Shown in pieces: positions 364-48,971 of a stretch of 64,000 nucleotides of DNA. Source of the stretch: an uncultured Bacteroidaceae bacterium (GTDB lineage Bacteria; Bacteroidota; Bacteroidia; Bacteroidales; Bacteroidaceae); contig CALUJL010000031.1 in the NCBI GenBank assembly GCA_944320955.1, forward strand, positions 1 to 64,000, read 5' to 3'. The notes beneath the pieces were generated by a model. That model saw only the letters and a list, made by a program, of their open reading frames with translations, was not told the origin of the DNA and did no database searches. The position numbers and the translations under genes are program-made. The number at the start of each line of letters is the position of its first letter. The stretch's first letter is position 1.

Positions 364-473
364 AAAAGCGCTGCATCTTTTCAGAAGAAGTGCTGCATGT
401 TTTGGGAAAAAGCGCTGCATCTTTTCGGAAAAAGCCCTGCATGTTTTCGGAGAAAGCCCTGCCGCGCACGGGA
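364..473. repeat. 22-bp tandem repeat array A (5 units)
   Basis: Five contiguous units of exactly 22 bp. The G that ends the AAAAG motif falls at 368, 390, 412, 434 and 456. Cores read CGCTGCATC, TGCTGCATG, CGCTGCATC, CCCTGCATG and CCCTGCCGC, so all are in the CTGC orientation. No unique spacers separate the units. Confidence 0.9.
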
Positions 474-491
474 AAAGGGGCACAAGGAAAA

Positions 492-522
492 GCCGCCCTG
501 CGCAATCGCTGCGGAGGGCGGC
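492..522. terminator. Hairpin between WG gene and DPP-IV gene
   Basis: GCCGCCCT (492-499) pairs with AGGGCGGC (515-522), and the inner CGCA (501-504) pairs with TGCG (510-513) across one G-G mismatch. On the minus strand it is followed by a T-rich stretch (TTTTCCTTG), fitting a terminator for the convergent minus-strand peptidase gene. The loop side resembles the hairpin at 10695-10724. Confidence 0.6.
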
Positions 523-585
523 CGAACTACTTAAAATTGAATCTTATGGAAAAAAATTGAATGGTTATGGAGAAAATGGGGATTG

Positions 586-2820
586 TCAGAGGTTCTTTTT
601 CCAATAGTCGGCCATGGTCTTGCGCAGGTGGAGCGACGTTCCCGGCCGTTCGTTGATGGAGTGCGAACGCATGGGGTAGGAGATCTGGGAGAAAATCTTA
701 CCGTGTTTCACCAGCTCGTTGACCAGCATTTCGCAGCTCTGGTAGTGCACATTGTCGTCGCCCGTGCCGTGGATGAGCAGCAGGTTGCCCTCGAGTCCCT
801 CGACATAGCTAATGGGCGAGCCTTTGCGGTAGCCCTCGGGATTGTTTTGCGGCGTGTTCATGTAGCGTTCCTGGTAGACGGTGTCGTAAAGCCGCTGGTC
901 GGAGACGAAAGCCACGGCAATGCCGGTGGAGAAGACCTGCGGGTAGCGGAACATGCAGTTGAGCGTCTGGCTGCCCCCGCCGCTCCATCCGGTAATTCCC
1001 ACGCGGTACGGGTCGAGCCACGGGAAGCGCGCCAGCAAGTCGAGCACCCCGTTTGCCTGGTCGCGGCTGGCCAGCGTGCCGACCTCGCCGTAGATGCACT
1101 TGCGCCAGGCGCGTCCGCGGGGAGCCGCCGCGCCGCGGTTGTCGATGCTCACTACGACATATCCCAGCTGCGCAAGGTATTGGTGCCAAAGGTCGCCCCC
1201 GCCCCAGACATCCTGCACCGTGGAGTTGGCAGGCTCGCCGTAGACGTCGACAATCATCGGGTACTTTTTCGTAGAGTCGAAGTCGGCCGGGAGAATCATC
1301 CAGGCATCGAGCTGGAGAGTGTCGCTCTTTACCTTGAGGAACTGCTTGGGACGCAGGCCGAGGGCTGCATATTCGGCGCGGGCGCGCTCGTTGGTCACCA
1401 GCGTGCGCACCACCTTATGCCCGGGGAAGGAGAGGATTTCGGCCACGGGCGGCATCTGTGCGTTGCTGAAGCTGTGCACGGCCCACTTTCCCGTAGGCGA
1501 CATCTGGTAGGAGTGCTGCCCCACCTGCCCCTCGGGGCTGAGCCGCTCGCAGCCGCTGCGCCCCTTCTTGAGGGAAGCGCTGTAGAGATAGCGCTGCGTA
1601 GCATTGTCGGGCGAGGCAATGAAGTAGAGGATTTGCTTTTTCAGGTCGGCGCCGACGATCTGGATGAGGTCGAAATTGCCGGAAGTGATGGGGCTGATTT
1701 CTTTTCCGTCGCGGCTGACGCGGTAAAGATGGCGGAATCCGCTGCGTTCGCTCATCCAAGTGAAGGACTGCGCATCATCGAGCCAGAGAATCTGGTCGTT
1801 CGTTTCGAGCCAGGCGGCGTCTTTTTCGGTAAAGATGTTGCGCGCCTTGCCGTCGGCGAGGGAGACGGTCCAGACATAGTTGGTGTTTTGCTCGCGGTTC
1901 ATCTGCTGGATGAAGAGCTCGTTGCTGCCCGGGATGAATTCCATGCGGGGGATGTACATGTTGCGTGCGTCGCCGGGCAGGTCCACCCAGTGCGTCTCGC
2001 CGCCCTCGACGGGCATGTATCCCACGCGGACGGCCGAATTCGTGGTGCCGGCCTTGGGGTAAGGGAAGTGGAGCAGGGTGGGATAGATGGAATCCACATT
2101 ATTTATTATGTCGAAGACGCCCGTCCCGCGCGTGTCGCTCTGCCAGTATGCGATAAAGCGGCTGTCGGGGCTGAAGCGGAAGCCGTCGCGGCAGGAGAAT
2201 TCTTCTTCGTAGACCCAGTCGAAGGTGCCGTTGACGATGTAGTCGCACCCGTCGGGCGTCAACTGCCGGGGAGCGGCTTCGGCGGCGGTGGCGGGCTCGA
2301 TGTAGATATTGTTGCGGCTGACGTAGGCCACGCGCTGCCCGTCGGGGGAGAATTTGGCAAACATCAGCGAGCTTTCGGGCAGGCCTTTGCCCAACTGGCG
2401 CAGCGCGCCGGTCGAGAGGTCGAGCAGCCAGTAGTCTCCGCGCGTGTCATATCGCCAGACGCGGCGGGTGTTATTGTAGATGAGCACCTTCTTGTTGTCG
2501 TTGCTCCAGACCAAACTGCGCACGGGCAGGGGCTTTCCGCTCTCCGGGTAGCGCAAAAGGGAGGAAGGTATGAGCACTTGGCGCGCTTCGTCGGCCGCTT
2601 TGTAGGAAACCACTTCCACTCCTCCGTCTTCCGCAGTCTCCACGCGCGAATAGCTCTCCCCGTCGGCCAGCCAGACAGGCGAAGGGGCGTATTGGGTATG
2701 GATCAAACTTCCGTTTACTACCTGCTCCAGCTCCAGCGTGGCAGGCTTCTGTGCGCCTAGGGGCAGCGCGCCGAGCAGGGCGGCCAGCACGGCCGCAGAA
2801 AAAAGTCGCATGATTTTCAT
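586..2820 (-). CDS. Dipeptidyl peptidase IV-type serine peptidase (S9B)
   Basis: A 744-residue secreted peptidase with an N-terminal signal peptide ending near LPLGAQ. The N-terminal half is the DPP-IV beta-propeller, including the WVYEEEF motif near residue 204 whose glutamates bind the free amino terminus of the substrate in this family. The C-terminal alpha/beta-hydrolase domain carries the nucleophile in GWSGGGSQ (Ser about 612), the acid in GTGDDNVH (Asp about 686) and the base in MRSHSINE (His about 719). Length and motif order fit S9B enzymes that remove X-Pro dipeptides in the periplasm or at the outer surface. A TAACTTTG promoter element lies 35 bp upstream. The gene stands alone. 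The family is clear; DPP-IV specificity over related exo-dipeptidases is inferred. Confidence 0.9.
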   Translation of the reverse strand: MKIMRLFSAAVLAALLGALPLGAQKPATLELEQVVNGSLIHTQYAPSPVWLADGESYSRVETAEDGGVEVVSYKAADEARQVLIPSSLLRYPESGKPLPVRSLVWSNDNKKVLIYNNTRRVWRYDTRGDYWLLDLSTGALRQLGKGLPESSLMFAKFSPDGQRVAYVSRNNIYIEPATAAEAAPRQLTPDGCDYIVNGTFDWVYEEEFSCRDGFRFSPDSRFIAYWQSDTRGTGVFDIINNVDSIYPTLLHFPYPKAGTTNSAVRVGYMPVEGGETHWVDLPGDARNMYIPRMEFIPGSNELFIQQMNREQNTNYVWTVSLADGKARNIFTEKDAAWLETNDQILWLDDAQSFTWMSERSGFRHLYRVSRDGKEISPITSGNFDLIQIVGADLKKQILYFIASPDNATQRYLYSASLKKGRSGCERLSPEGQVGQHSYQMSPTGKWAVHSFSNAQMPPVAEILSFPGHKVVRTLVTNERARAEYAALGLRPKQFLKVKSDTLQLDAWMILPADFDSTKKYPMIVDVYGEPANSTVQDVWGGGDLWHQYLAQLGYVVVSIDNRGAAAPRGRAWRKCIYGEVGTLASRDQANGVLDLLARFPWLDPYRVGITGWSGGGSQTLNCMFRYPQVFSTGIAVAFVSDQRLYDTVYQERYMNTPQNNPEGYRKGSPISYVEGLEGNLLLIHGTGDDNVHYQSCEMLVNELVKHGKIFSQISYPMRSHSINERPGTSLHLRKTMADYWKKNL

Positions 2821-2854
2821 CGGTCTTGTCTTCGGTTTTCGGTTAACGTGCGGG

Positions 2855-2862
2855 CAAAGTTA
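2855..2862 (-). promoter_or_regulatory. -7 element for the DPP-IV gene
   Basis: TAACTTTG on the minus strand matches the Bacteroidetes TAnnTTTG consensus. It predicts a leader of about 30 nt before the ATG at 2820. Confidence 0.65.
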
Positions 2863-2885
2863 ATAAAAAAAGAGCCCGCCCCGGC

Positions 2886-2973
2886 AAAAGCGCTGCCGCT
2901 TTTTCCAAAAAGTCCTGCCGCTTTTCCCGAAAAGTGCCGCATCTTTTTCCCGAAAGCGCTGCCACTTTCCGCC
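2886..2973. repeat. 22-bp tandem repeat array B (4 units)
   Basis: AAAAG-type junctions at 2890, 2912, 2934 and 2956 give an exact 22-bp period. Cores include CGCTGCCGC, TCCTGCCGC and TGCCGCATC. It occupies most of the 323-bp gap between the divergent DPP-IV and BspA-like genes, upstream of both promoters. Confidence 0.9.
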
Positions 2974-3036
2974 CGGAGCGGAGGGGGGAAGCGGCATTTC
3001 CTACGGCATACGTTTTCATTTTCGGAGAAAAATGTT

Positions 3037-3044
3037 TTACTTTG
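3037..3044 (+). promoter_or_regulatory. Probable -7 element for BspA-like gene
   Basis: TTACTTTG differs from TAnnTTTG at one position and is followed by GCG as in neighbouring promoters. It lies 99 bp before the ATG, so the leader would be long. Confidence 0.4.
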
Positions 3045-3143
3045 CGCCGGAGATTCCCCCCTCTACCCCAAGGGCGGAGGGGAAGCAGGTGAGCGATTTA
3101 CCGGAAATCTCCCTACCGAATACACTAAAAACGAGACGAAGAA

Positions 3144-6011: not shown

Positions 6012-6034
6012 CCCGCCCGCGCACTCCCAAACCC

Positions 6035-6077
6035 GAAAGCCCGCCCTGCCCCCGACACCCCGGCAGGGCGGGCTTTC
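6035..6077. terminator. Terminator after BspA-like gene
   Basis: GAAAGCCCGCCCTGCC (6035-6050) and GGCAGGGCGGGCTTTC (6062-6077) form a perfect 16-bp stem with an 11-base loop, 24 bp after the stop codon. No clear T-run follows. Confidence 0.75.
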
Positions 6078-6104
6078 ACGCAACCGGCCCCGCCGCTTCC
6101 GCCG

Positions 6105-6214
6105 AAAAGCCCTGCAACTTTTCCGCAAAACCGCTGCCGCTTTTCCCAAAAAGTGCCGCATCTTTTCCGCCACCGCGCCGCAACTTTTCGCCCGAAGCCC
6201 TGCAAACCAAAGTT
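6105..6214. repeat. 22-bp tandem repeat array C (5 units)
   Basis: Junctions at 6109, 6131, 6153, 6175 and 6197 keep an exact 22-bp period. The array ends 8 bp before the typA promoter element and so lies where upstream promoter contacts would be. Confidence 0.9.
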
Positions 6215-6221
6215 TTTTGCG

Positions 6222-6229
6222 TACCTTTG
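6222..6229 (+). promoter_or_regulatory. -7 element for typA
   Basis: TACCTTTG followed by GCGCCCGG; about 42 nt of leader before the ATG at 6277. This position rules out the much longer upstream open frame as the protein start. Confidence 0.7.
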
Positions 6230-6276
6230 CGCCCGGATCGGCCCACGGCCCTTCGCAGAACAGACTCTATGACTTT

Positions 6277-8717: not shown

Positions 8718-8805
8718 AAAAGCGGCAGCGCGCTTTGCGGAAAGCGCTGCCGCTTTTTCCCCTTTCCCCCGCAACTTTTCCGGAAAAGGGGCATGACTTC
8801 CCGGC
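8718..8805. repeat. 22-bp tandem repeat array D (4 units)
   Basis: Junctions at 8722, 8744, 8766 and 8788. Core orientation changes inside the array: CGGCAGCGC, then CGCTGCCGC, then two degenerate cores. It separates the nitroreductase and SulP genes. Confidence 0.85.
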
Positions 8806-10581: not shown

Positions 10582-10669
10582 AAAAGCCCTGCCGCTTTCG
10601 GGGAAAAACGCTGCATCTTTTCCGAAAAAGCCCTGCAACTTCTGACCGCAAGTTGCAGGGCTTTTCCCG
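10582..10669. repeat. 22-bp tandem repeat array E (4 units)
   Basis: Junctions at 10586, 10608, 10630 and 10652. The first three cores are in CTGC orientation (CCCTGCCGC, CGCTGCATC, CCCTGCAAC); the last is inverted (TTGCAGGGC), which creates the terminator at 10626-10665. Confidence 0.9.
10626..10665. terminator. Terminator built from two opposed repeat units
   Basis: AAAAGCCCTGCAACTT (10626-10641) and AAGTTGCAGGGCTTTT (10650-10665) form a perfect 16-bp stem with an 8-base loop. A-rich and T-rich flanks on both sides make it a bidirectional terminator for the convergent SulP and aroA genes. Confidence 0.85.
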
Positions 10670-10694
10670 TACCCCGGCAGGGGGAAAAGAAAAA

Positions 10695-10724
10695 GCCGTG
10701 CGGCGCATCGCTGCGGCACACGGC
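10695..10724 (-). terminator. Terminator for aroA
   Basis: GCCGTG (10695-10700) pairs with CACGGC (10719-10724), with further inner pairing GCGCA/TGCG. On the minus strand it is followed by TTTTTCTTTTCCCCC. It sits 34 bp past the aroA stop. Confidence 0.65.
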
Positions 10725-12070: not shown

Positions 12071-12201
12071 AAAAGCCTTGCCCGCAGCAAAAAAAGCGCA
12101 AGCACTTTCCGGAAAAAGTGCTGCATGTTTTTCCGAAAAGCGCTGCATGTTTTCGGAAAAAGCCCTGCCGCTTTTTTGGAAGAGTGCCGCGGGAAATGTA
12201 T
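12071..12201. repeat. 22-bp tandem repeat array F (5-6 units)
   Basis: Junctions at 12075, 12096, 12118, 12140, 12162 and 12184; all steps but the first are 22 bp. It fills the gap between the divergent aroA and FISUMP promoters and ends exactly where the latter's -7 element begins. Confidence 0.9.
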
Positions 12202-13727: not shown

Positions 13728-13837
13728 AAAAGCGGCAGCGCCAGCGGCAAAAAGTGCAGGCACTTTTCCCGGAAAGCCCTGCATGTTTTCGCAGAAAGCC
13801 CTGCCGCTTTTTCCGCAAGGCGGCGCAGGGCTTCCCC
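13728..13837. repeat. 22-bp tandem repeat array G (5 units)
   Basis: Junctions at 13732, 13754, 13776, 13798 and 13820. Both core orientations occur. It lies between the convergent FISUMP 1 and xerD genes, about 45 bp past the xerD stop. Confidence 0.9.
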
Positions 13838-14868: not shown

Positions 14869-15297
14869 ATGAGAATTTTGATTTTGAACGGCCCGAACCT
14901 CAACCTCCTGGGGCGGCGCGAACCGGAAATCTACGGGCAAGACTCGATGGAGACCCTGCTCGGGCGGCTCCGCGCGGCCTATCCGGACGTAGAACTGGAG
15001 TACGCGCAGAGCAACAGCGAAGGGGTTCTGATAGACCACCTGCAGGAAGCCGGATACCGGTGCGACGGTATCGTCTTCAACGCAGGCGCTTACACGCACA
15101 CGTCCGTCGCCTTGCACGACGCCATCAAGGCCATTCCCGCCCCGGTGGTGGAGATACACATCTCCAACGTGCATACGCGCGAGGCTTTCCGCCGCGTTTC
15201 GATGATTTCCCCCGCCTGCTGCGGCGTGATCTGCGGCTTCGGGCTGGATTCCTACCGCCTCGGCATCGAAGCCCTCAGGGCACGGCTGCAAAAATAG
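14869..15297 (+). CDS. aroQ: 3-dehydroquinate dehydratase, type II
   Basis: A 142-residue type II dehydroquinase, the third step of the shikimate pathway. Motifs are complete: ILNGPNLNLLGRREPEIYG carries the catalytic Tyr (about 22), FNAGAYTHTSVALHDAI is the substrate pocket, and EIHISNVHTRE contains the catalytic His. Length matches the dodecameric family. It begins a plus-strand run with pyk, an O-methyltransferase, rbfA and an FtsX/LolE-like permease; array H separates it from pyk. The leader is about 20 nt. Confidence 0.97.
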   Translation: MRILILNGPNLNLLGRREPEIYGQDSMETLLGRLRAAYPDVELEYAQSNSEGVLIDHLQEAGYRCDGIVFNAGAYTHTSVALHDAIKAIPAPVVEIHISNVHTREAFRRVSMISPACCGVICGFGLDSYRLGIEALRARLQK

Positions 15298-15312
15298 GCG
15301 GCACTTCCCGGC

Positions 15313-15378
15313 AATTCATGCGGCACTTTCCGGAAAAAGCGGCAGCGCTTTTCCGCAGAAGCGCTGCCGCTTTCCACA
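15313..15378. repeat. 22-bp tandem repeat array H (3 units)
   Basis: Junctions at 15317, 15339 and 15361, filling the 104-bp gap between aroQ and pyk. If the two genes share a transcript, the array is transcribed. Confidence 0.85.
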
Positions 15379-16862: not shown

Positions 16863-16899
16863 GCGCGGCAAGCCGCACCCGGCGGCAGCACTTCCGCCC

Positions 16900-16987
16900 G
16901 GAAGCCCTTGCACTTTCCGGCAAAAGTGCTGCCGCTTTCCGGCAAAAGCCCCGCCGCTTTTCCCCGAAACCGCCGCATCCCCCGGCA
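16900..16987. repeat. 22-bp tandem repeat array I (4 units)
   Basis: Junctions at 16904, 16926, 16948 and 16970 in the 142-bp gap between pyk and the O-methyltransferase gene. Cores CCCTTGCAC, TGCTGCCGC, CCCCGCCGC and CGCCGCATC. Confidence 0.85.
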
Positions 16988-19369: not shown

Positions 19370-19457
19370 AAAAGCCCTGCCGCTTTTCGGAAAAAGTGCC
19401 TGCGCTTTTCCCGAAAACCGCTGCACCTTTTCCGTCGCAGCCGTAAGGCTCTTCCGA
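19370..19457. repeat. 22-bp tandem repeat array J (4 units)
   Basis: Junctions at 19374, 19396, 19418 and 19440. It lies between the permease gene and the promoter of the orphan secreted protein; the rest of the 261-bp gap is AT-rich. Confidence 0.88.
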
Positions 19458-19509
19458 AAACACAGCCATGCTTTTTAAACAATAAAAAGCCGCTTTTTTA
19501 TAAAATCAT

Positions 19510-21625: not shown

Positions 21626-21648
21626 ACAAAACCTCTGTGCTTTCCCCA

Positions 21649-21736
21649 AAAAGCCCTGCCGCTTTTTTCGGAAAGATGCAGCGCTTTTGGGGAAAAGCGG
21701 CAGCACTTTTCCCCGGCCGCGGCAGGGCTTTCCCCC
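21649..21736. repeat. 22-bp tandem repeat array K (4 units)
   Basis: Junctions at 21653, 21675, 21697 and 21719. One CTGC core is followed by three GCAG cores. It lies in the 378-bp gap between divergent genes; the remaining 21737-21890 holds no other recognised feature. Confidence 0.88.
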
Positions 21737-27724: not shown

Positions 27725-27812
27725 GAAAGCACTGCATCTTTTCCGGAAAAGCGCTGCATGAATTCGCCAAAAGATGCGGCGCTTTTTCCGAAAACCGCTG
27801 CAAAGATAGCGG
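27725..27812. repeat. 22-bp tandem repeat array L (4 units)
   Basis: Junctions at 27729, 27751, 27773 and 27795. The last unit contains the nhaA -7 element on the opposite strand, so the other three units are transcribed into the nhaA leader. Confidence 0.9.
27801..27808 (-). promoter_or_regulatory. -7 element for nhaA inside a repeat unit
   Basis: TATCTTTG on the minus strand overlaps the last unit of array L, whose core there reads CGCTGCAAA. No other TAnnTTTG occurs between it and the ATG. Confidence 0.65.
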
Positions 27813-27871: not shown

Positions 27872-30064
27872 TCAGAGCGTGAGGCGCAGCATGAAGTCCA
27901 GATCCTGCTTGGCCGGGGAGTCTATGCGCTGCAGGCCGCTGCTGATCGTGCTGCGGTCGAAGTAGCGGGTCAGGCCGTATTTCCCGATGAGGGCCAGCCT
28001 CCGGCCCCAATTGTAGCGGAGCATCACGTAGGCGCGCAGGCCCCGCCCGTAGAAGGAAGGCACGGAGAAGGTGTAGGGCAGGCCGTATTCGTAGGAGTAG
28101 AGGCGCGAGGCATAGTCGTCTGTGCGGAAACCGCCCACCCCCGCCGCAGCCTGCAGGGGCAACCGCCGCGGTTTCCACACGACGGCCTGCGCCGCCATCC
28201 AGCCGAGGCCGCGGCGGTGGCGGAGATGCCCGGCGGAAGTGAAGAGGAGCGACGTCTTGGCCACGAACTCCTCCTCCCCGCCCACGGCATAGCGCAGCTG
28301 AAGCTTGGCGCGGTGCGTGGCGTAGGGGACCACGCTGTGCCGGTCTTCCCCGTCGAGGGCTGCCGAAGCGAGGTTCTTGCCCTTCTGCTTGTATCGGTAG
28401 TAGGCATCGACCTGCCAGCCGCGGCGCGGCGTCCAGAGGAGCCGGCCCATGAGGTCGAAACCCCGCGAGGGGGCGCTCACGTTGTATTTAGGATAGGGAA
28501 AGCGGAAAAAGTCGGCAAAGAGCGTGAGCCTCAGCCCGCGCAGGGGGAGCGGCCCCTCGGCGCCGAGGTAGAGGCCCTCCTCGTTTTGCACATATCCGCC
28601 TTCGGAAAAGCTCCGGGCGTAGAAGCTCCGGTAGCGAAGGTCGTAGCGCCGGTAGAGGAGTACGGCGGTCCAGTCGCCCGGAAGAGGCTGGCGGACGGTC
28701 TGGAGCAGGGCGGTGTGGCCGGCGGGGTCGAGGGCTATTTCGCCGGAGAGCTGCGCGCGCCCGAGGAGGAGGCGGTAGTCTGCGCTCAAGTTGTAGCCCC
28801 GGCGGCCGCGGAAGTAGTGGGTATTGTAGTAGCGGAGCGCGGGTTGGTAGGTTTTGCTGAAGAAGTAGCCCACGGCGTTGAGCCCCGCTTCCAGGCGGGT
28901 GCCGAGGTAGTGGACGGACCCGCCTGCGGTCTGGAGCACGGCGGCATGGCGGCGGCCGGCTTCGCGCGGCAGGCGGTGGTAGCCGTCGGTCGTGATGCTC
29001 ACGAGCGTGTCGCCGCTTTCCGTGCGCCCGTCGGGGCGGCGGTAGGAATAGAAGGCGGAAAGGCGGAGGCGCGGCAGGGGTTGCAGGACGAAGGCAGCCC
29101 CGCTCAGATAGTTATACTCGTCGAGCGAGGTATGGGCGCGGAGCTTTCCGCGGTTCAGGCCGGCCACGGGCAGCGCCGAGCCCTTGCTGCTGAGAAAACC
29201 GTTGCCCATCGTGAGCCCCTGCCCCAGGTCGATGCGGTAACTGCCCAGGGCCAGGGTGTGGAGCCAGCCGCGGCCGCGGTAGAGGAAATAGAGGGAATAG
29301 GCATCGTAGCCCTTGCGGTTCGTGCCGCGGAAGAAGGGCTCTCCGGCATCGTTGGAGGCGGTGAGCCCGGCTTGCAGGCGGTCGGCAAGGCGAAAGGAGT
29401 AGCGCAACGAATGGGCCACGGGCGGCCCGAGATAGGCGGCGTCGGGGTTTTCCATCAGTTCCGGCACGGTTTTTTCCCTGTAGCCCTCGCGGCGATAGAG
29501 GGGCAGGGAGGCCTTGAGCTGCAAGTCGTGCCGCCCCCGGCGCAGGGAGAGGCGCTCCTGTCCATCGGCGGAAGCGCCGGGCGGGCGCACGCAGAGGAAA
29601 GGGCCCACGAGGCGCAGCCCGAGGCGGGAAAAGGCCGGGAGGAGCTGCAATTCCTGCAGGCTGCGGAAGGCGCCGTGGCGGGCGCGGTAATCGAGAATCT
29701 GCTGCGCCCCCTCGGGCGGGAGGAAGGGGATGCGCTCCAGATCGCGGCGTGTGGCGCGGTTCAGGTCGAGCGGATTGGCGAGCAGGTGTTCCCACTCTTC
29801 GCGGTTTTCCTCCCACAAGGCTGGGGAGAAGCCTTCCTCCTGTGCGCTCTCCTCCTCCAGCAGCTCCAGAAAGTCGCGCACCCGCGCGGCCGCCCCGGAG
29901 CGGTTATCCCCGTCGGCCTGCCCCCGCAGCGGGAGACAGGCAAGGAGGAGGCAGAAAAGCACTGCACGAAACCGGAAAAAGCGCTGCCGCTTTTCGGAAA
30001 AAGTGCCTGCACTTTTCGCCCGAAGGGGCAGCACTTCCCGGAGGAAGAAGCCACGGTTTGCCAT
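27872..30064 (-). CDS. Helix-hairpin-helix/beta-barrel outer-membrane protein
   Basis: A 730-residue protein. After a hydrophobic segment (AVLFCLLLACLPLRG) come paired helix-hairpin-helix motifs of ComEA type at residues about 95-145 (LDLNRATRRDLERIPFLPPEGAQQILDYRAR is split here by position). The remaining 550 residues alternate aromatic and polar residues in short strands ending in aromatic or Leu residues, as in a large outer-membrane beta-barrel; the C-terminus FMLRLTL fits barrel insertion. This pairing occurs in Bacteroidetes genomes; the function is unknown, with DNA contact only suggested. The ATG at 30064 follows the -7 element by 11 bp. Codons 1 to about 36 lie entirely in repeat array M, so the true start could be the GTG at about residue 35. 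Confidence 0.7.
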   Translation of the reverse strand: MANRGFFLREVLPLRAKSAGTFSEKRQRFFRFRAVLFCLLLACLPLRGQADGDNRSGAAARVRDFLELLEEESAQEEGFSPALWEENREEWEHLLANPLDLNRATRRDLERIPFLPPEGAQQILDYRARHGAFRSLQELQLLPAFSRLGLRLVGPFLCVRPPGASADGQERLSLRRGRHDLQLKASLPLYRREGYREKTVPELMENPDAAYLGPPVAHSLRYSFRLADRLQAGLTASNDAGEPFFRGTNRKGYDAYSLYFLYRGRGWLHTLALGSYRIDLGQGLTMGNGFLSSKGSALPVAGLNRGKLRAHTSLDEYNYLSGAAFVLQPLPRLRLSAFYSYRRPDGRTESGDTLVSITTDGYHRLPREAGRRHAAVLQTAGGSVHYLGTRLEAGLNAVGYFFSKTYQPALRYYNTHYFRGRRGYNLSADYRLLLGRAQLSGEIALDPAGHTALLQTVRQPLPGDWTAVLLYRRYDLRYRSFYARSFSEGGYVQNEEGLYLGAEGPLPLRGLRLTLFADFFRFPYPKYNVSAPSRGFDLMGRLLWTPRRGWQVDAYYRYKQKGKNLASAALDGEDRHSVVPYATHRAKLQLRYAVGGEEEFVAKTSLLFTSAGHLRHRRGLGWMAAQAVVWKPRRLPLQAAAGVGGFRTDDYASRLYSYEYGLPYTFSVPSFYGRGLRAYVMLRYNWGRRLALIGKYGLTRYFDRSTISSGLQRIDSPAKQDLDFMLRLTL
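29955..30064. repeat. 22-bp tandem repeat array M (5 units, in coding DNA)
   Basis: Junctions at 29959, 29981, 30003, 30025 and 30047. The array runs from inside the HhH/barrel gene to exactly its likely start codon, so it encodes the pre-signal segment (…REVLPLRAKSAGTFSEK…). Confidence 0.9.
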
Positions 30065-30214: not shown

Positions 30215-30324
30215 GCGGGCGCTACGGCTTTTCGGAAAAAGCGGCAGTACTTTTGCCGGAAAGCGCTGCATCTTTCCGGCAAAAGTCCTGCATCTTTCTG
30301 CCGCGGGCTGCGCGGCGGCTGTCG
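30215..30324. repeat. 22-bp tandem repeat array N (5 units)
   Basis: Junctions at 30219, 30241, 30263, 30285 and 30307, directly downstream of the TolC-like gene (minus strand, stop at 30342). A perfect GC palindrome at 30206-30219 abuts it, as beside array E. Confidence 0.85.
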
Positions 30325-30341: not shown

Positions 30342-31658
30342 TCACTCCAGGCGCCCCGTGGCGCGGAGGTATTCCGTCTCGTAAATCTTACACTGCGTGC
30401 GGGCTTCTATGAGGTTGCTCTCCGCCTGCTGCCACTGCGACTGGGCTTCCAGCAAATCGGTGAGCGGGCTCATCGAGGCGGCGTAGCGGTTTTGCATGAC
30501 GCGCAGGTTCTCCCGGGCCTGGCGCAAGGCGGTCTCGGCCGTCTGCAGCAGGAGATAGCCGTCGTCCACGTTGCGCGCGGCCTGCTCGGCCTCTATGCGG
30601 AGCAGGCGGGCGCTGCGGCTGAGTTCGAGGCGGGCGTTCTGTACGTCGAAGCGGGCCTTGCGCACTTTCTTGCGCGTCTCGCCCCAACGGAAAAGGGGCA
30701 CTTTGACTGCCAGCATCAGCATGCCCATGCCGTCGCGGAACTCCTGCGTGTAGGGCACCGCCGTGCCGTCGCCCGCATCGGCAAGGCCCTGGAGTTTTAT
30801 GTTTCCATAGTAGGAATATCCGGCCGTCAGGCCTACGGTGGGCAACATGTCGGCGCGGGCCATGCGCACCTGCTGCTCGCCGGCTTCTATCCGGTGCTCC
30901 AGCAGGTGCAGCTCGGGGCGGGCCTCCACGCTGGTTTCCGGCAGCGCGGGCGGGGCGACGGCAGGGAGCGTATCGGTAAGCAGCAGGCGCGTGCCGGGCT
31001 CCGCTCCCACAATCTGGCAGAGCGAGAGGCGGCAGAGTTCGGCGCCGCTGCGCGCTTTGCGGAGCTGGTAGCGGATGTTGCCGCGCTCGGCCTCGATGCG
31101 GAGCAAATCGGCTTCGGTGGCCATGCCGGCCGCCAGCGCGGTGGAGATTTGCCTGTGGAGCGTGTCCATCCGGCTGCAGTAGCTTTCCAGCATGCGCACC
31201 TTGCGGCCGACGGCCACGCAGGTCCAATAGGCCCGGTCGGCTTCCACTATGACGTCCATGCGGCTCATGCGCTGCTCTTCTGCGGCAGCCTCGCTGCCGA
31301 TGCGGGCCAGGCGCCGGCCGGAAACTATCTTGCCCCCGGCGTAGAGGGGCTGCGTGAGGGTGATGCCGGCCATGTAGGAACCGCGCATGCGCAGCTCCGC
31401 CCCCGCCATGTCCATGTCGGGGAAGATGTAGGCCCCCATGGCGGAAGCCTCCAGTTTGGGCAGGTAGGCCGTCGCGGCGATCTCGCGGTCGAGACGGGAT
31501 TGGGAGAGCTTGTTGCCGGCCTGCTGCAGCACTTCGCTGCAGGCGAGCGCCCGCTCGCGGCAGCCGGACAGGGAGAGACTGAGGGGCTGCTGCGCCGCGG
31601 TGGGGAAAAAGTGCAGCAGCAAGAGGAAAAAAGCGGCAGTGGTTTTCGGGAAATTCAT
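30342..31658 (-). CDS. TolC-like outer-membrane efflux protein
   Basis: A 438-residue outer-membrane factor of a tripartite efflux pump. The signal peptide MNFPKTTAAFFLLLLHFF is followed by two OEP repeats (about 30-215 and 230-430) rich in long amphipathic helices, with typical elements such as ITLTQPLYAGGKIVSGRR and AVKVPLFRWGETRKKVRKA. It follows the RND pump gene by 14 bp on the minus strand, so it is the third gene of the operon. The start codon and signal peptide lie inside repeat array O: the codons for TTAAFF derive from one unit. The frame is open far upstream, but only this ATG precedes the signal peptide. Confidence 0.9.
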   Translation of the reverse strand: MNFPKTTAAFFLLLLHFFPTAAQQPLSLSLSGCRERALACSEVLQQAGNKLSQSRLDREIAATAYLPKLEASAMGAYIFPDMDMAGAELRMRGSYMAGITLTQPLYAGGKIVSGRRLARIGSEAAAEEQRMSRMDVIVEADRAYWTCVAVGRKVRMLESYCSRMDTLHRQISTALAAGMATEADLLRIEAERGNIRYQLRKARSGAELCRLSLCQIVGAEPGTRLLLTDTLPAVAPPALPETSVEARPELHLLEHRIEAGEQQVRMARADMLPTVGLTAGYSYYGNIKLQGLADAGDGTAVPYTQEFRDGMGMLMLAVKVPLFRWGETRKKVRKARFDVQNARLELSRSARLLRIEAEQAARNVDDGYLLLQTAETALRQARENLRVMQNRYAASMSPLTDLLEAQSQWQQAESNLIEARTQCKIYETEYLRATGRLE

Positions 31659-31694
31659 TGCATGTTTTGTTTTTAAGCGGCAGCGGTTTTCCGG
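31607..31694. repeat. 22-bp tandem repeat array O (4 units, across a gene junction)
   Basis: Junctions at 31611, 31633, 31655 and 31677. It spans the last codons of the RND gene (RKTAAA), the 14-bp gap, and the signal-peptide codons of the TolC-like gene. Most cores are in GCAG orientation on the plus strand. Confidence 0.85.
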
Positions 31695-36066: not shown

Positions 36067-36996
36067 ATGCAATACCCCGACCGATTCAGCAACCTGAGCC
36101 TGATGGCCATACCGCTCGACGGACGAAGCTGCGTCTTCCGCAACGAATTTCTCCTGGCCGACAACCTCGACGAGGCAGGCTCTGCCGTAGACCTCACTGC
36201 CGACCCCGGCGCAAAGCCCTTCATCACCTCGCCCTACCCCTTCAAGATCCAGTTCTGGATGGCCATGCTCTGCCTGGGCGGACGCATGCGCGTGCAGCTC
36301 AACCTCTTCGAGTACGAGCTGGGAGAAAATGACGTTTTGATAATAGAGGAAGGCTCCATCGGCCAGGCCCGAAGCATTTCGGCCGACTGCCGCCTCGTCG
36401 TCATAGCCTCCTCCTCGCCCCATTTCGTGCCCGAGGCAAGCACCCGGGAGGCCATCTCCATACGCCGCTTCCTCTCCGCCTCACCGCTCATCCGCCTCGC
36501 CCCCGCCGACGTGGAAGAAACGCTGGGCCTCTACCGCCTCATGCGCCGCAAGATACAGCAGAGCGGCTACCGGTACACACGCGAAGCCCTCAGGGGATAC
36601 ATGCAAGTGCTCTTCTGCAACTGCTGCCAGCTGGCCTCCGCCCACGCCGAAGCCCCGCAGGCCGCCGCCGGAGGACGGCAGGAAGAACTCTTCGGCCGCT
36701 TCATGGAGCTGCTCAAAGAACACTACACCCGCGAGCGGAGCATAGCCTTCTATGCCGGCAAGCTCTGCATCACGCCGAAATATCTCTCGCAATCCGTCTG
36801 CCACGCCAGCGGCCGCCGCGCCGGGGAGTGGATACGCGACTACGTAATCCTCGAAGCAAAAGCCCTCTTAAAGAGCCGCAAATACACCGTGCAGCAGGTG
36901 AGCGAGATGCTCCACTTCCCCAATCAGTCCTTCTTCGGCGCCTATTTCCGCAAATCCGCAGGCTGCTCGCCCCGGGCCTACCAGATGCACGGCTGA
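36067..36996 (+). CDS. AraC-family transcription regulator
   Basis: A 309-residue regulator. The N-terminal 170 residues resemble the AraC ligand/dimerisation cupin (HFVPEA, LFEYELGENDVLIIEEGSIG). The C-terminal 100 residues are the double helix-turn-helix domain: LKEHYTRERSIAFYAGKLCITPKYLSQSVCHASGRR is HTH 1 with flanks, and YTVQQVSEMLHFPNQSFFGAYFRKSAGCSPRAYQ is HTH 2 (both are cited by position, about 215-250 and 265-300). It diverges from the RND operon and is the obvious candidate for its local control, perhaps in response to the pump's substrate. The stop codon abuts repeat array P. Confidence 0.88.
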   Translation: MQYPDRFSNLSLMAIPLDGRSCVFRNEFLLADNLDEAGSAVDLTADPGAKPFITSPYPFKIQFWMAMLCLGGRMRVQLNLFEYELGENDVLIIEEGSIGQARSISADCRLVVIASSSPHFVPEASTREAISIRRFLSASPLIRLAPADVEETLGLYRLMRRKIQQSGYRYTREALRGYMQVLFCNCCQLASAHAEAPQAAAGGRQEELFGRFMELLKEHYTRERSIAFYAGKLCITPKYLSQSVCHASGRRAGEWIRDYVILEAKALLKSRKYTVQQVSEMLHFPNQSFFGAYFRKSAGCSPRAYQMHG

Positions 36997-37105
36997 GAAG
37001 CGCTGCCGCTTCTGCCGAAAAGTGCTGCCGCTTTTCGGGAAAAGCGCTGCAACTTTTCCGAAAAAGCCCTGCCGCTCTCCGGAGAAAGCCCTTGCGGGGA
37101 AAAAA
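36996..37105. repeat. 22-bp tandem repeat array P (5 units)
   Basis: Junctions at 37000, 37022, 37044, 37066 and 37088. It begins at the last base of the AraC gene's stop codon. Cores are mostly CGCTGCCGC-like. Confidence 0.9.
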
Positions 37106-39271: not shown

Positions 39272-39306
39272 TCCCCTGCCTCCCCCGGACGGCAGGGGAT
39301 TTTTCA
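39272..39306 (+). terminator. Terminator after DUF2264 gene
   Basis: CCCCTGCC (39273-39280) pairs with GGCAGGGG (39291-39298), extended by one T-A pair, followed by ATTTTTCATTTT. Confidence 0.85.
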
Positions 39307-39394
39307 TTTTCATGCAGCGCTTTTCAAGAAAAGATGCAGCACTTTTTCCCACTCCATGCAGCACTTTCCAAAGAAAGACGCAACGCTCTTTTCT
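39307..39394. repeat. 22-bp tandem repeat array Q (4 units, inverted cores)
   Basis: Junctions at 39311, 39333, 39355 and 39377. Clear cores are in GCAG orientation (ATGCAGCGC, ATGCAGCAC). The rest of the 417-bp gap before gdhA (39395-39550) is A/C-rich with no other feature seen. Confidence 0.85.
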
Positions 39395-41159: not shown

Positions 41160-41247
41160 AAAAGTGCTGCACCTTTTTTCCGGAAGTGCTGCATCTTTTT
41201 CCGAAAACCGCCGCATGAAACCAGAAAAAACCCTGCCCCTTTTCGCA
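41160..41247. repeat. 22-bp tandem repeat array R (4 units)
   Basis: Junctions at 41164, 41186, 41208 and 41230, in the 305-bp gap between the convergent gdhA and nadA genes. The last unit forms one arm of the nadA terminator. Confidence 0.88.
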
Positions 41248-41258: not shown

Positions 41259-41292
41259 CCAAACTATAGATAAATTGAAAAAGAAAATTTCT

Positions 41293-42713: not shown

Positions 42714-42746
42714 CATCCGTTACGACAATGCTTAATGGGAAACACG

Positions 42747-43289: not shown

Positions 43290-43302
43290 TGTGCGCCGTG
43301 CG

Positions 43303-43950: not shown

Positions 43951-43955
43951 GGCCG

Positions 43956-43963
43956 CAAAAATA
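43956..43963 (-). promoter_or_regulatory. -7 element for DUF4294 gene
   Basis: TATTTTTG on the minus strand; only 5 bases separate it from the ATG at 43950, so the mRNA should be leaderless or nearly so. Confidence 0.7.
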
Positions 43964-44075
43964 CGGCTTCTGCTTGAAATAGAGCCTCTTTGCCGTAAAT
44001 AAAAAGTATAATAGATGTTGCTCCGTTTCCCATTTTACAAAACTTTTAGTCTCCCCTCCCCTGCTTTTGTCTAAA

Positions 44076-44184
44076 TTAAGTAACGGGACTTTTCCCCCCA
44101 GCCCTGCCGCTTCCGCCGGAAAGCGCTGCATGAAATCTGGAAAACATGCAGCACTTTTCCAGAAAAGCAGCAGGACTTTTTTTG
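44076..44184. repeat. 22-bp tandem repeat array T (4-5 units)
   Basis: Junctions at 44080, 44101, 44123, 44145 and 44167 (first step 21, others 22). It lies in the 312-bp gap between the divergent DUF4294 and second BspA-like genes; 43964-44075 holds nothing else recognised. Confidence 0.85.
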
Positions 44185-44216
44185 TAGGGTATGGGGCTTT
44201 TTACCAAAAGAATAAC

Positions 44217-44224
44217 TATTTTTG
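44217..44224 (+). promoter_or_regulatory. -7 element for second BspA-like gene
   Basis: TATTTTTG followed by CAATC; leader about 32 nt before the ATG at 44263. Confidence 0.7.
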
Positions 44225-44262
44225 CAATCATCTGAATAACAAACAAGAACAAATCGAACATT

Positions 44263-46899
44263 ATGAACAGAAGATTACAAAGGATTTTGGCGTTAGCCCT
44301 GCTTGTGTTGGTTGGAACCTACGCGCGGTCGCAGACGATCGGAAACAATTATGATGCCTATGTGGGTGGAGTTTATTATAAACTTAATAAGGAAGCCAAA
44401 ACAGCTTCAGTAACATTTATAAGACAATTGGTGCAGCGTCCGATGGATCCACAGATGCCTGTAGAAATTATCTATGAGACAGATTACAAAGGTAGCATAG
44501 TAATTCCTAAGACTATTGAAGTGGATGACCCCATAACCGTTGCAGTGGATAAGGAAGAGTACACCGTGACGTCTATTGGCCACCATGCTTTTTATAGATG
44601 CACGGGGCTTCGGAGCGTCGTATTGCCTGCCACGGTCACTTCTATCAGTTCCAGTGCGTTCGAAGGGTGCACCATGTTGTCCTCCATCGATATGCCTCTT
44701 ACTATGGAAATCATAGCAGATAGAGCTTTCTACGGCTGTAGAAATGCGAAACTTATTTTCCCGAAAGTCCTAACGCTGGGCACGGATGCGCTCACGGGCA
44801 GCAAGATCGGCGTGGGAGTGGAAGCCTATGGCCTTTGTTTCGTACCGGACAAGGAGGAAGGTACTGCCATGCTCATCGCAAAGGACATAGACGTGGACGA
44901 AAACGGCAGCATCATATATAATAGAGATGCGAAGTACGAAGGAAAAATAGCTTTGGGCGGCAGTTATTCCATAAACGGGAATACGGAAAGTTATAGACTA
45001 AATTCTATTAGCGACCATGCCTTTACGAACTGTAGTATCGACGGGCTTTACCTTCGGCCAAGCATTACGAAGATTTCTCCTGCAGCTTTTGAGGATGCGC
45101 AGATAAACAATTTGTTTGTTTCTTCCCCGTTGCAGTCGTCTTATGCAGCGTTTGCTTCGCTCAGTGGAGGACATATTTTTACGATTCCCGACGAAATAGA
45201 GAAGATAGAGCAGTATTTTTCCGGCGAAGTGTTCTCCATTGAGCCGGTGGTGACGGATGTCACGCCTTACTTGCGGGGAGTTTCGTTCCGTGCCCATAGT
45301 GCTAATAAATATATGACTTTAGGAGATCCTACTGGAGTAGAAGGAATCGAGCCGATGGAGAAGGGCGACGATGGATACTACATGTTTAAATTAGATTATC
45401 TCCAGCCCGGAGAGGATAGTCAAGTATGGCTGAATTATACAATCGAAAATTGTCCGGAAGAATTGAGCTATGAGATTCCTTTTACAACTGTGCCTTTTTA
45501 CAGTGTGACGCAGCTGAAATCGCGTACACAGACTTCGGTTTCCTTCACAGTCACGGTGCCGGAAGATAAAACTTGGTCGCTGGAGAAACTGATTGTTGGG
45601 GATAAGGAAATAAAAAATGGCGGGGAATTAAGCTATTCAGGCCTTACTCCGGGAGCTTCCTTATCGGTAGATGGCATTGCCCTCTATGACAGTACGGACT
45701 TTTCTTCATTTTGGATAGATAAAATAAATGCCTCTTTCCCATTTTCGACAAGCAGAATAGGGATATTAGGCCTTGATGAAGAGATCACGGTGCAGGATAT
45801 AGGACCGACAAGTGCTACTATTATGGGAACATATACCCTTATCGATGCTGAAGTGGAGCGGACAGAATTGATTTGCAACGAGGAAGTTTCGGAAAATGAC
45901 AGGCTTGATTTGACAGGATTGGAGCCTGGAAAAAAGTATAGTATTCGTTATCATATTTATTCGGGTAACGGGCCAATCGCATCCGACTATCGTGAATTTT
46001 CCACCGATACCGTCTCTTTCCGCACGCTCCCGGCACAGGCTGTGTCGAATACGTGCGCCATCATTGCGGCGGAGTGCAACATCAGCGAAAACGAGACGGG
46101 CTGTGGCTTCGAATGGCGGCGCTACGACGCGCCCGACCTGGTACCCTCCACATTCAGCCCCTGCTTCGTGGCCGACAGCATGCTGGCCGGTCGGCTCGAA
46201 GGCCTCAGCGCAAACACATATTACAAGTATCGCCCCTATTACCGTTCTGCATCGGGCACGTATTACTATGGCGAGTGGATAGCTTTCGGCACGGCCGATG
46301 CCTACGTCTACTTCGAGCCGATTGTCTATACCTCTGCTCCCGAGATCAAAGGGACTGCCGTTTGCCTGCGCGGGCAGGCTCTCGCGGGTTCCGAACCGGT
46401 AGTGCGGCAAGGATTCGAATACTGGGAAGAGTCTTCCCCGGCCTTGTCCGCGAAACGCGTAGCGGGAGCGGTGCAGACGGTTTTGGCCGAGGGTACGCGC
46501 ATGGAGGTCGAGCTGAAGGACCTGCTTCTGGGTGCGACTTACGTCTACCGAGCTTTTGTTACTACCGCTACGGGCACCACTTACGGCGAAACCCGCAGCT
46601 TCTCCCTTCCGGGAGCGCCTGTGGGAATCGAAGAAACCGCTGCCGCTTCCGGCGAAAAGTGCTTGGACTTTTCTGTACGTCATGCAGGGCAAATGGAGAT
46701 TTGCGTTTCGGGAAGCAGTGCAGAGCGGTGCGTCTGCCGTGTGACGGACACGGCGGGGCGGACAGTGTTCTCTGCATCGGTCTTGGCCGACGGACAGTGG
46801 CATCTGCTCGGTGAAGCCGGTGCCTTACCCGCAGGGCTGTATGTGTTGACCTTGACGGACGGCACGGAAGTGAAGTCGCGCACGGTCTTGGTGGAATAA
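44263..46899 (+). CDS. BspA-like LRR protein with type IX secretion tail
   Basis: An 878-residue secreted protein. After a signal peptide (MNRRLQRILALALLVLVG) come LRR_5 repeats (GHHAFYRCTGLRSVVLPATV, about 95-330), then fibronectin III-like segments (about 340-780), then an 80-residue C-terminal domain starting near GEKCLDFSVRHAG and ending LTDGTEVKSRTVLVE, which matches the type A sorting domain of the type IX secretion system (GLYVLTLTDG is typical). It should be exported through T9SS and anchored to the cell surface. Codons before about 46015 are much more AT-rich than those after, and only the later part is close to the paralog at 3144-6011. Two repeat units encode the linker before the sorting domain. 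Confidence 0.85.
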   Translation: MNRRLQRILALALLVLVGTYARSQTIGNNYDAYVGGVYYKLNKEAKTASVTFIRQLVQRPMDPQMPVEIIYETDYKGSIVIPKTIEVDDPITVAVDKEEYTVTSIGHHAFYRCTGLRSVVLPATVTSISSSAFEGCTMLSSIDMPLTMEIIADRAFYGCRNAKLIFPKVLTLGTDALTGSKIGVGVEAYGLCFVPDKEEGTAMLIAKDIDVDENGSIIYNRDAKYEGKIALGGSYSINGNTESYRLNSISDHAFTNCSIDGLYLRPSITKISPAAFEDAQINNLFVSSPLQSSYAAFASLSGGHIFTIPDEIEKIEQYFSGEVFSIEPVVTDVTPYLRGVSFRAHSANKYMTLGDPTGVEGIEPMEKGDDGYYMFKLDYLQPGEDSQVWLNYTIENCPEELSYEIPFTTVPFYSVTQLKSRTQTSVSFTVTVPEDKTWSLEKLIVGDKEIKNGGELSYSGLTPGASLSVDGIALYDSTDFSSFWIDKINASFPFSTSRIGILGLDEEITVQDIGPTSATIMGTYTLIDAEVERTELICNEEVSENDRLDLTGLEPGKKYSIRYHIYSGNGPIASDYREFSTDTVSFRTLPAQAVSNTCAIIAAECNISENETGCGFEWRRYDAPDLVPSTFSPCFVADSMLAGRLEGLSANTYYKYRPYYRSASGTYYYGEWIAFGTADAYVYFEPIVYTSAPEIKGTAVCLRGQALAGSEPVVRQGFEYWEESSPALSAKRVAGAVQTVLAEGTRMEVELKDLLLGATYVYRAFVTTATGTTYGETRSFSLPGAPVGIEETAAASGEKCLDFSVRHAGQMEICVSGSSAERCVCRVTDTAGRTVFSASVLADGQWHLLGEAGALPAGLYVLTLTDGTEVKSRTVLVE
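46633..46676. repeat. Two 22-bp repeat units inside coding DNA (array U)
   Basis: Junctions at 46637 and 46659, exactly 22 bp apart, with cores CGCTGCCGC and TGCTTGGAC. They encode ETAAASGEKCLDFS, the linker between the last FnIII segment and the sorting domain. Confidence 0.75.
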
Positions 46900-46941
46900 C
46901 CGCTACCGTCCTTTCCTTCTTCCGCAGGGGCGGAAAACGAA

Positions 46942-46977
46942 AACCGCCGGACAAGTTACGAGACCTGTCCGGCGGTT
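46942..46977. terminator. Bidirectional terminator BspA2/argS
   Basis: AACCGCCGGACA (46942-46953) and TGTCCGGCGGTT (46966-46977) form a perfect 12-bp stem between the convergent genes. Confidence 0.8.
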
Positions 46978-47001
46978 CTATTATAATAAGGTATAGGCAG
47001 T

Positions 47002-48801: not shown

Positions 48802-48825
48802 GGGTACGTTTGGTTTTTATGGCTG

Positions 48826-48833
48826 CAAAGGTA
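48826..48833 (-). promoter_or_regulatory. -7 element for argS
   Basis: TACCTTTG on the minus strand, followed by CAGCC; leader about 18 nt. Confidence 0.7.
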
Positions 48834-48861
48834 CGAAAAAATCCCCCTTGCGGCAAATGGG

Positions 48862-48971
48862 AAAAGTCTTGCCTCGGCCGGCAAAAAGTGCTGCCGCTTT
48901 TTCCGGAAAGATGCAGCACTTTTTCCGGAGGGATGCAGGGCTTTTTGCCGGCCGCGGCAGGAGGGGTGGCC
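48862..48971. repeat. 22-bp tandem repeat array V (5 units)
   Basis: Junctions at 48866, 48888, 48910, 48932 and 48954. Core orientation switches from CTGC to GCAG in the middle, giving an array with overall dyad symmetry. It is the last array; none was found from here to the right edge. Confidence 0.9.

What the first reader, a model, noticed from the sequence alone, without database searches (positions are those of the whole stretch)
364..48971. Family of 22-bp tandem repeats in strict register across the chromosome segment
About 21 arrays with 2-6 units each share one design: AAAAG, nine variable bases around CTGC or GCAG, then about CTTTTCCG. I measured the junction G in every array and the step is 22 bp almost without exception (for example 6109, 6131, 6153, 6175, 6197). 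Units vary in sequence but not in length, so spacing seems to be selected while the core drifts among a few forms (CGCTGCCGC, CGCTGCATC, CCCTGCCGC, TGCTGCATG and reverse complements). Twenty-two bp is about two helical turns, so one face of the DNA would be presented again and again, as expected for cooperative binding by a protein. The unit ends are self-complementary, so single units can also fold as short hairpins. There are no unique spacers, so this is not CRISPR. I know of no named element with this form.
Basis: seen in the sequence. Interest (0 to 1): 0.88.

Follow-up and report, generated by a model that had tools for sequence, protein, structure and literature searches.

The report
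Four-site phased DNA elements between genes
Between its genes this bacterium carries hundreds of short DNA elements, each a row of about four similar sites set 22 letters (two turns of the helix) apart, and some relatives carry the same layout written in quite different letters; they likely are docking platforms for an unknown DNA-bending protein that would keep neighbouring genes apart.

Summary
The window holds 20 arrays of 4-5 dyad units (AAAAG-N8-CTTTT) stepped by 22 bp; the genome holds 763 two-unit matches, 0 for the reversed pattern. In 800 kb sampled, 382 of 394 steps are 22 bp. Neighbouring units are barely more alike than random ones, arrays are not copies of each other, and the arms of a unit do not covary; slippage, block copying and selected hairpins are disfavoured. 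Arrays sit between transcription units in all three gene orientations, mostly upstream of promoters and nearly always one per gap.

Seven genomes of a related genus, most likely Bacteroides, carry 52-116 matches to an unrelated sequence (TGTACA) with the same step; 31 of 32 distinct elements read have exactly four sites. Dyad rows at period 22 recur elsewhere in Bacteroidales. REP, BrickBuilt and iteron membership tests failed. Most likely these are operator platforms for a cooperative DNA-bending protein acting as boundary elements. The protein is unidentified; a terminator role or some mobility is not excluded.

The parts
364..469 (.). array, 5 units (4 strong), convergent gap
2886..2969 (.). 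array, 4 units, divergent gap; promoter motifs of the TAnnTTTG type read by eye on both outer sides
6083..6188 (.). array, 5 units (3 strong), tandem gap after a terminator-type hairpin (read by eye, about 6036-6076) and before typA/bipA
8718..8801 (.). array, 4 units, tandem gap
10582..10665 (.). array, 4 units, convergent gap
12092..12197 (.). array, 5 units (4 strong), divergent gap
13728..13833 (.). array, 5 units (4 strong), core on both strands, convergent gap next to a tyrosine recombinase (XerD-like) gene
15291..15374 (.). array, 4 units, core on both strands, tandem gap before a pyruvate kinase gene
16878..16983 (.). array, 5 units (4 strong), tandem gap
19370..19475 (.). array, 5 units (3 strong), tandem gap
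21627..21732 (.). array, 5 units (4 strong), core flips strand, divergent gap
27725..27808 (.). array, 4 units (3 strong), tandem gap
29955..30060 (.). array, 5 units (3 strong), overlaps the called 5' end of gene 27872-30064 (start probably mis-called)
30215..30298 (.). array, 4 units (3 strong); with the previous one perhaps two arrays in one gap
31607..31690 (.). array, 4 mostly weak units, overlaps a called gene 5' end, tandem
36996..37079 (.). array, 4 units, tandem gap
39285..39390 (.). array, 5 mostly weak units, tandem gap
41160..41243 (.). array, 4 units, convergent gap
44097..44180 (.). array, 4 units (2 strong), divergent gap
48862..48945 (.). array, 4 units (3 strong), tandem gap; last array of the window
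46633..46672 (.). 2-unit match inside called gene 44287-46899; doubtful

Best explanation
This genome carries roughly 400 intergenic elements (an estimate), each a row of about four 18-bp dyads stepped by 22 bp, which likely act as operator platforms on which a sequence-specific protein would assemble cooperatively, bend the DNA and form a boundary between neighbouring transcription units. Shown: step, unit number, concentration outside genes, place mostly upstream of promoters and in all gene orientations, near-independence of units and arms, the same layout in other letters in relatives, and, at one locus of a related genus, better conservation than the flanks. Predicted: intrinsic curvature. 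Inferred: that a protein binds, that it is an oligomer, and that the effect is insulation (of read-through transcription, of supercoils, or both). The letters seem private to a lineage while the geometry is kept, so the protein would have changed its specificity, or been replaced, without changing its spacing.
For: Spacing: 382 of 394 steps are 22 bp. Unit number peaks at 4 (2:3, 3:21, 4:52, 5:36, 6:11, 7:6, 8:3 of 132), unlike an open-ended minisatellite. Units behave almost as independent draws from one profile: neighbours agree at variable positions in 0.528 against 0.495 when dealt at random, identical neighbours 3 of 309; best 40-bp matches between arrays no better than the null; no dyad covariation. 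That fits selection on binding sites better than copying. Location: 7967 units per Mb outside called genes against 437 inside. Gaps of 80 bp or more with at least one unit: tandem 87 of 173, divergent 36 of 70, convergent 30 of 65 (summed). One array per gap: in the first sample 1 of 185 gaps has two against 15.5 expected at random, minimum 9 in 500 runs; in the second 28 gaps have one, none has two. TAnnTTTG in tandem gaps: 26 in 6605 bp between array and start, 2 in 3758 bp between stop and array; 7 in 2742 against 1 in 1563 bp. In divergent gaps 22 outward against 4 inward and 17 against 5. Predicted net bend 8.4 degrees per turn against 3.8 shuffled, 2.7 at 24-bp spacing. Relatives: 7 of 9 genus-g3 genomes have 52-116 three-site matches at a 22-bp step, none at a 20-bp step; 35 of 36 entries (31 of 32 distinct elements) have exactly 4 TGTACA; the element upstream of corA is 0.90-0.97 identical with 0 gaps in four genomes, flanks 0.43-0.91.
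Against: No binding protein is known or was found. Neighbours are slightly more alike than chance (4 of 1000 deals reach it), and 115 of 193 units in tandem gaps share the direction of transcription. Hairpin+T motifs inside arrays are commoner in convergent gaps (29 of 36 strands) and tandem gaps (42 of 58 sense, 39 of 58 antisense) than in divergent ones (19 of 36), as a terminator role would predict. In 27 of 58 tandem gaps the array starts within 35 bp of the stop, leaving little room for another terminator. Gaps without any unit are common: 82 of 123 of at least 80 bp in the blind sample. In genus g3 only 4 of 35 classed entries lie in divergent gaps, and there promoter motifs point inward more often than outward (9 against 4). 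In g3 some elements ride in larger repeats: a 550-bp segment occurs twice in G174 at 93% identity and in G202 and G160 at 82-88%, and a stretch of at least 3 kb is doubled in G479, so the second conserved group is no clean orthologue test. Hundreds of sites would have to change together when the letters change between lineages. Curvature is strongest at 21, not 22. The same-genus genome G001 shows no excess of lag 22 (11 runs against 27 at lag 21).
Confidence: 0.48

Rival explanations
1. The arrays are multi-hairpin bidirectional transcription terminators: each AAAAG...CTTTT unit would give an RNA stem with an A-run before and a U-run after it.
For: Units are A-run/GC core/T-run dyads; hairpin+T motifs occur inside arrays on 42 of 58 sense strands of tandem gaps and 29 of 36 strands of convergent gaps, 19 of 36 in divergent gaps. 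In 27 of 58 tandem gaps little room is left for a terminator before the array. MFE -36 against -21 per 100 nt in shuffles.
Against: Arms do not covary; folding equals that of arrays rebuilt position by position, and sense and antisense fold alike (-38.1 and -40.0); divergent gaps hold units as often as the others (36 of 70); where there is room, strong hairpins lie between stop and array (median best -23.0 against -15.1 shuffled in 31 tandem segments, -26.2 against -17.9 in 26 convergent ones), though tandem start sides also exceed shuffles somewhat (-15.4 against -11.6). In genus g3 hairpin+T motifs inside the element are few (9 of 38 strands of tandem elements).
Confidence: 0.17
2. They are mobile or selfish interspersed repeats of the REP/BIME/MITE kind that are tolerated only in untranscribed gaps.
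For: Hundreds of copies, lineage-specific sequence, intergenic, patchy among relatives (52-116 matches in seven g3 genomes, 0 in two). In g3 some elements sit inside larger repeated segments.
Against: This genome has no Y1_Tnp/RAYT match (33 of 61 genomes searched have one). Its arrays are not copies of one another, half-sites are unlinked, no conserved flank comparable to the units and hardly any GTAG/CGTC tags, one per gap far below random. At corA the g3 element is shared by four genomes and better kept than its flanks. Exact patterns found nothing in viral contigs; plasmids gave no match to one own array or one g3 element, phages one 27-bp match to the g3 element (the own array was not searched in phages).
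Confidence: 0.17
3. Only the helical phasing matters: curved DNA that places plectoneme tips or gyrase wrapping between genes, with no dedicated sequence-specific protein.
For: Predicted curvature above shuffles and lost by respacing to 24; unrelated letters with the same 22-bp step in several Bacteroidales.
Against: Core bases are strongly kept within this genome (C 0.94, G 0.89, C 0.83 at positions 8, 10, 11), so a specific code exists; curvature alone would favour 21.
Confidence: 0.13

Closest known systems
REP/BIME elements (GTAG- and CGTC-tagged palindromic repeats)
   Same: Short dyads, hundreds per genome, extragenic, lineage-specific letters, sometimes in rows
   Different: No RAYT found in this genome, GTAG/CGTC tags nearly absent, arms not kept paired, arrays not block copies, as frequent between divergent genes, 22-bp step and about four units. 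PMC3733652 (passages read) reports REPs mostly between unidirectional and convergent genes.
BrickBuilt MITE/minisatellite of Porphyromonas gingivalis
   Same: Bacteroidales (recalled), intergenic, tandem unit of about two turns
   Different: 23-nt tandem repeat inside a MITE with leader and tail, 19 copies (PMC4596501, outline with abstract and passages read); here 22 bp, about four diverged dyads, no leader or tail seen
Plasmid iterons (Rep-binding, often about 22 bp; recalled)
   Same: Two-turn spacing kept while letters differ between plasmids, several sites, cooperative binding
   Different: Inverted dyads rather than direct repeats, hundreds of chromosomal loci, no Rep_3 (PF01051) match in 10 genomes searched
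PM2, a near-palindromic promoter motif of B. thetaiotaomicron
   Same: Near-palindromic, boxes at about -10 and -30, Bacteroides (PMC7366714; section 6 and passages read)
   Different: A promoter element; its letters are only in a figure that I could not see, so identity is untested

Membership tests
REP/REPIN with RAYT | RAYT (Y1_Tnp, PF01797) gene in the genome | tested here: not met
   0 matches in G000 (95.9% complete draft); 33 of 61 genomes have one
REP/REPIN with RAYT | GTAG or CGTC tag at one end | tested here: not met
   132 arrays +-10 bp: GTAG 3, CTAC 5, CGTC 7, GACG 13 in 11.8 kb
REP/REPIN with RAYT | paired stem kept | tested here: not met
   83 of 441 palindromic at inner dinucleotides, 87.4 expected; no dyad covariation
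REP/REPIN with RAYT | scarce between divergent genes | tested here: not met
   units in 36 of 70 divergent gaps of at least 80 bp, as in other classes; in genus g3 4 of 35 entries are divergent
BrickBuilt MITE | 23-nt near-identical repeats with leader and tail | tested here: not met
   period 22; slots beyond the array ends far less conserved than units
CRISPR | unique spacers between identical repeats | tested here: not met
   4-bp linkers between diverged units
Minisatellite by slippage | neighbours most alike, open-ended copy number | tested here: not met
   neighbour identity 0.528 against 0.495, a small excess; number peaked at 4
Iterons | Rep_3 initiator (PF01051) | tested here: not met
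   0 of 10 genomes; other Rep families not tested
Intrinsic terminator | selected stem plus T-run downstream of genes only | tested here: inconclusive
   hairpin+T inside most arrays, but no covariation and divergent gaps equally occupied
Cooperative operator array | a protein that binds the units and needs the spacing | not testable with these tools
   needs binding assays

The most novel reading that the evidence does not exclude
Bacteroidales own a class of chromosomal boundary element defined by geometry, not sequence: about four dyads at 22 bp, one per gap between transcription units, read by an architectural protein whose letter code is rewritten from lineage to lineage while its spacing is frozen - a bacterial counterpart of an insulator.
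Probability: 0.32. Interest if true: 0.93.

Novelty: categorically new. Interest (0 to 1): 0.8.

Why it matters
An element kept by spacing and site number while its letters change is hard to see in sequence-similarity searches, which may be why it seems undescribed. If it marks borders between transcription units, it would give a major bacterial order a systematic insulator, and it hands experimenters a ready bait (array DNA with 22-bp against 20- or 24-bp spacing) to fish out the protein.

Tried and rejected
RAYT/REPIN origin: no Y1_Tnp match in the genome. Slippage minisatellite: neighbours scarcely more alike than random. Block transposition in this genome: array-to-array matches equal the null. 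RNA hairpins as the selected feature: no covariation. Rfam: no match in the window. Carriage by viruses or plasmids: nothing in viral contigs by exact pattern or in plasmids; one 27-bp phage match judged chance. Rep_3 initiator: 0 of 10 genomes. PM2 as the same motif: letters not in the text. The first two terminator scans were superseded. Tn7-type 22-bp TnsB sites (recalled) were considered and set aside because those are transposon ends with direct sites; not tested. PMC5771137: the passages that I saw hold nothing on such rows.

Corrections and dropped rows. My first own-genome sample (20 stretches, several chosen near listed hits, plus the window) is about 1.8 times too rich: 244 two-unit hits in 464 kb would give 1392 per genome, the whole genome has 763. 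A second sample chosen without regard to hits (336 kb, 2.6 kb of it masked) gives 60 hits and 43 arrays. 'Roughly 400' arrays: 763 scaled by 132/244, 175/304 or 43/60 gives 413, 439 or 547, and plain density of the blind sample gives 339. Left out of the class and one-per-gap counts: 34 of 132 arrays whose centre falls in a called gene, most at gene 5' ends or in low-scoring ORFs, and 2 more; in the blind sample 15 of 43. Gene calls come from my own script. In one search the G479 row was in the wrong orientation; one search replaces it. In one search the second and fourth groups contain copies from one genome, the third is one locus fetched twice; only the corA group is used. Of the 36 entries four are loci fetched twice, leaving 32. 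Searches had a wrong pattern (20-bp spacing) and serve only as a spacing control. One search, meant to name genus g3, did not tell kinship. For the and 80 family set I used 11 contig-start stretches and left out four short or masked ones and the targeted ones. Wedge values for curvature are recalled.
Full report
What is there. Its family also holds a genome whose single contig has the length of Phocaeicola vulgatus ATCC 8482 (5,163,189 bp; G332, record), so the family is probably Bacteroidaceae. The unit is an 18-bp dyad, AAAAG-YSCTGCNN-CTTTT, followed by a 4-bp linker. The asymmetric core may lie on either strand while the AAAAG/CTTTT frame stays in register. There are 20 arrays of 4-5 units in the window and 763 two-unit matches in the genome with none for the reversed pattern. 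Among 398 other genomes of the family none exceeds 41 matches to the two-unit pattern at up to 2 mismatches (this genome: 541), and the listed ones have other cores.

Own-genome statistics. In 464 kb (window plus 20 stretches; 379 genes called) there are 132 arrays of two or more strong units; 299 of 309 steps are 22 bp, 9 are 21 and 1 is 19. A second sample of 336 kb chosen without regard to hits has 43 arrays, with 83 of 85 steps at 22 and 2 at 21. Extending into weak slots gives a unit number peaked at four, median 84 bp. Units carry 22.8 bits. Scaling gives roughly 400 arrays per genome (339 to 547 by the way of scaling).

Units are not local copies. At variable positions neighbours agree in 0.528 of cases, units dealt at random in 0.495 (sd 0.012; 4 of 1000 deals reach the observed value), a small excess that points to slight local relatedness. 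The best 40-bp match of each array to any other is distributed like arrays dealt from a common pool of units. Symmetric positions of the dyad show no mutual information (z -1.2 to 2.4), while adjacent positions such as 12-13 do. Arrays fold strongly, but no more strongly than arrays rebuilt position by position. This is the pattern expected when each site is held near a profile by selection; copying, slippage and selected RNA stems each predict linkage that is absent or very small.

Where they lie. Gaps of at least 80 bp with at least one unit: tandem 70 of 110 and 17 of 63, divergent 21 of 36 and 15 of 34, convergent 21 of 39 and 9 of 26 (first sample; blind sample). The classes are alike; the first sample is too rich. 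In the first sample 94 gaps had one array and one had two; among gaps of at least 80 bp one of 185 had two, against 15.5 expected at random. In the blind sample 28 had one and none had two. Arrays overlapping called genes are not in these counts, and 29955-30060 with 30215-30298 may be a further exception. The motif TAnnTTTG (the Bacteroides -7 box, recalled) lies between array and start codon (26 in 6605 bp against 2 in 3758 bp between stop and array; 7 in 2742 against 1 in 1563) and points outward in divergent gaps (22 against 4; 17 against 5). It was seen in 25 of 58 tandem gaps on the start side and in 2 of 58 on the stop side. Strong hairpins lie between stop and array where there is room. 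A common order is thus stop, terminator if any, array, promoter, start.

Relatives. The only other genome of the genus that was searched (G001, 38% G+C, 153 kb read) shows a few rows of other letters with a 22-bp step by eye, but no excess of lag 22 over other lags. Genus g3 of the same family is unnamed in the tools; one of its genomes has a single contig of the length that I recall for Bacteroides ovatus ATCC 8483, so I take it to be Bacteroides. In seven g3 genomes a TGTACA version has 52-116 three-site matches each, in two others none; the same query at 20-bp spacing finds none. Of 36 entries read (32 distinct), 35 have exactly four TGTACA and one has five; 21 tandem, 10 convergent, 4 divergent, 1 at a stretch end. 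The query needed three sites, so shorter rows would be missed. In tandem gaps promoter motifs again favour the start side (15 in 4055 bp against 4 in 4437), in the four divergent entries they do not (4 outward, 9 inward). Upstream of corA the element is 0.90-0.97 identical without gaps in four genomes, while the flanks are 0.43-0.91 identical with up to 12 gapped columns. The 17 other corA loci have no three-site match. Against this stands that some g3 elements lie in larger repeats: a segment of about 550 bp at two places of G174, also in G202 and G160, and at least 3 kb doubled in G479.

How wide. In 0.66 Mb of Bacteroidales loci gathered around an unrelated gene, rows of three or more units have periods 21 (14), 22 (8), 18 (7), 23 (7), 24 (6), 27 (5) and a few others, and none at 19, 20, 25, 26, 28, 29 or 31; in 0.20 Mb of family stretches taken from contig starts, period 22 leads with 6, then 21 with 5. 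At period 22, 7 of these 14 rows are significantly dyad-symmetric (p 0.05 or less); at periods 20, 21, 23, 24 and 27 together 2 of 38 are; in 0.77 Mb from other groups 0 of 2 period-22 rows are. In this genome the same test reaches p 0.05 in 26 of 90 rows, since core flips blur the consensus. The samples are modest and period 22 is not the commonest period, but it is the one that carries dyads.

Mechanism. Two-turn spacing, about four sites, independence of half-sites, a specific core and predicted curvature together point to a protein that assembles on the row and bends it. Place and orientation-indifference point to a boundary function. The first part is a moderately strong inference, the second weaker. 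The terminator rival keeps some weight because hairpin+T motifs inside arrays rise from divergent (19 of 36 strands) to tandem (42 of 58 sense, 39 of 58 antisense) to convergent gaps (29 of 36).

Known or not. Rfam has nothing in the window. Paper searches and a search for printed TGTACA-unit strings gave no description of such elements; the library lacks most subscription papers, and the CTGC unit was not searched as a string. REP and BrickBuilt fail on tested features (see the membership table). I therefore rate the kind as new while holding the function open.

Noticed in passing
window 49000-64000: No arrays here. The stretch starts with an HU/IHF-like gene (49088-49360) and includes secDF; the last array ends at 48945.
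   Followed up: partly
window 533-576: Separate short 21-bp repeat (AAAATTGAATG.. type, 2.1 copies) just beyond the 3' end of the S9-peptidase-like gene.
   Followed up: no
window about 490-520 and 10690-10722: Two terminator-type hairpins read by eye share a similar inner stretch (GCGCA(A)TCGCTGCGG), perhaps a recurring terminator form.
   Followed up: no
L044, L045: Rows of about seven 22-bp units built on GACAGTTGTGTTTCT, longer than the usual four.
   Followed up: no
L215, upstream of corA: Tandem repeat of about 41 bp with a CCCGGG dyad between A and T runs, in another g3 genome.
   Followed up: no
genomes of genus g30 (e.g. G128, G187, G229): The reversed control pattern (TTTTC..GAAAA at 22 bp) has 41-44 matches in these genomes, so they may carry yet another phase of such elements.
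   Followed up: partly
g3 TGTACA elements (L180-L187, L230-L248, L269-L288): Sites are asymmetric, one flank C/G and the other T/A (complementary 0.37 against 0.51 expected), and outer sites often end in CTTGTACAA..TTGTACAAG.
   Followed up: partly
L272 and L281 (G174); L275 and L283 (G479): Elements inside larger repeated segments: about 550 bp at 93% identity, and at least 3 kb at 97%.
   Followed up: partly
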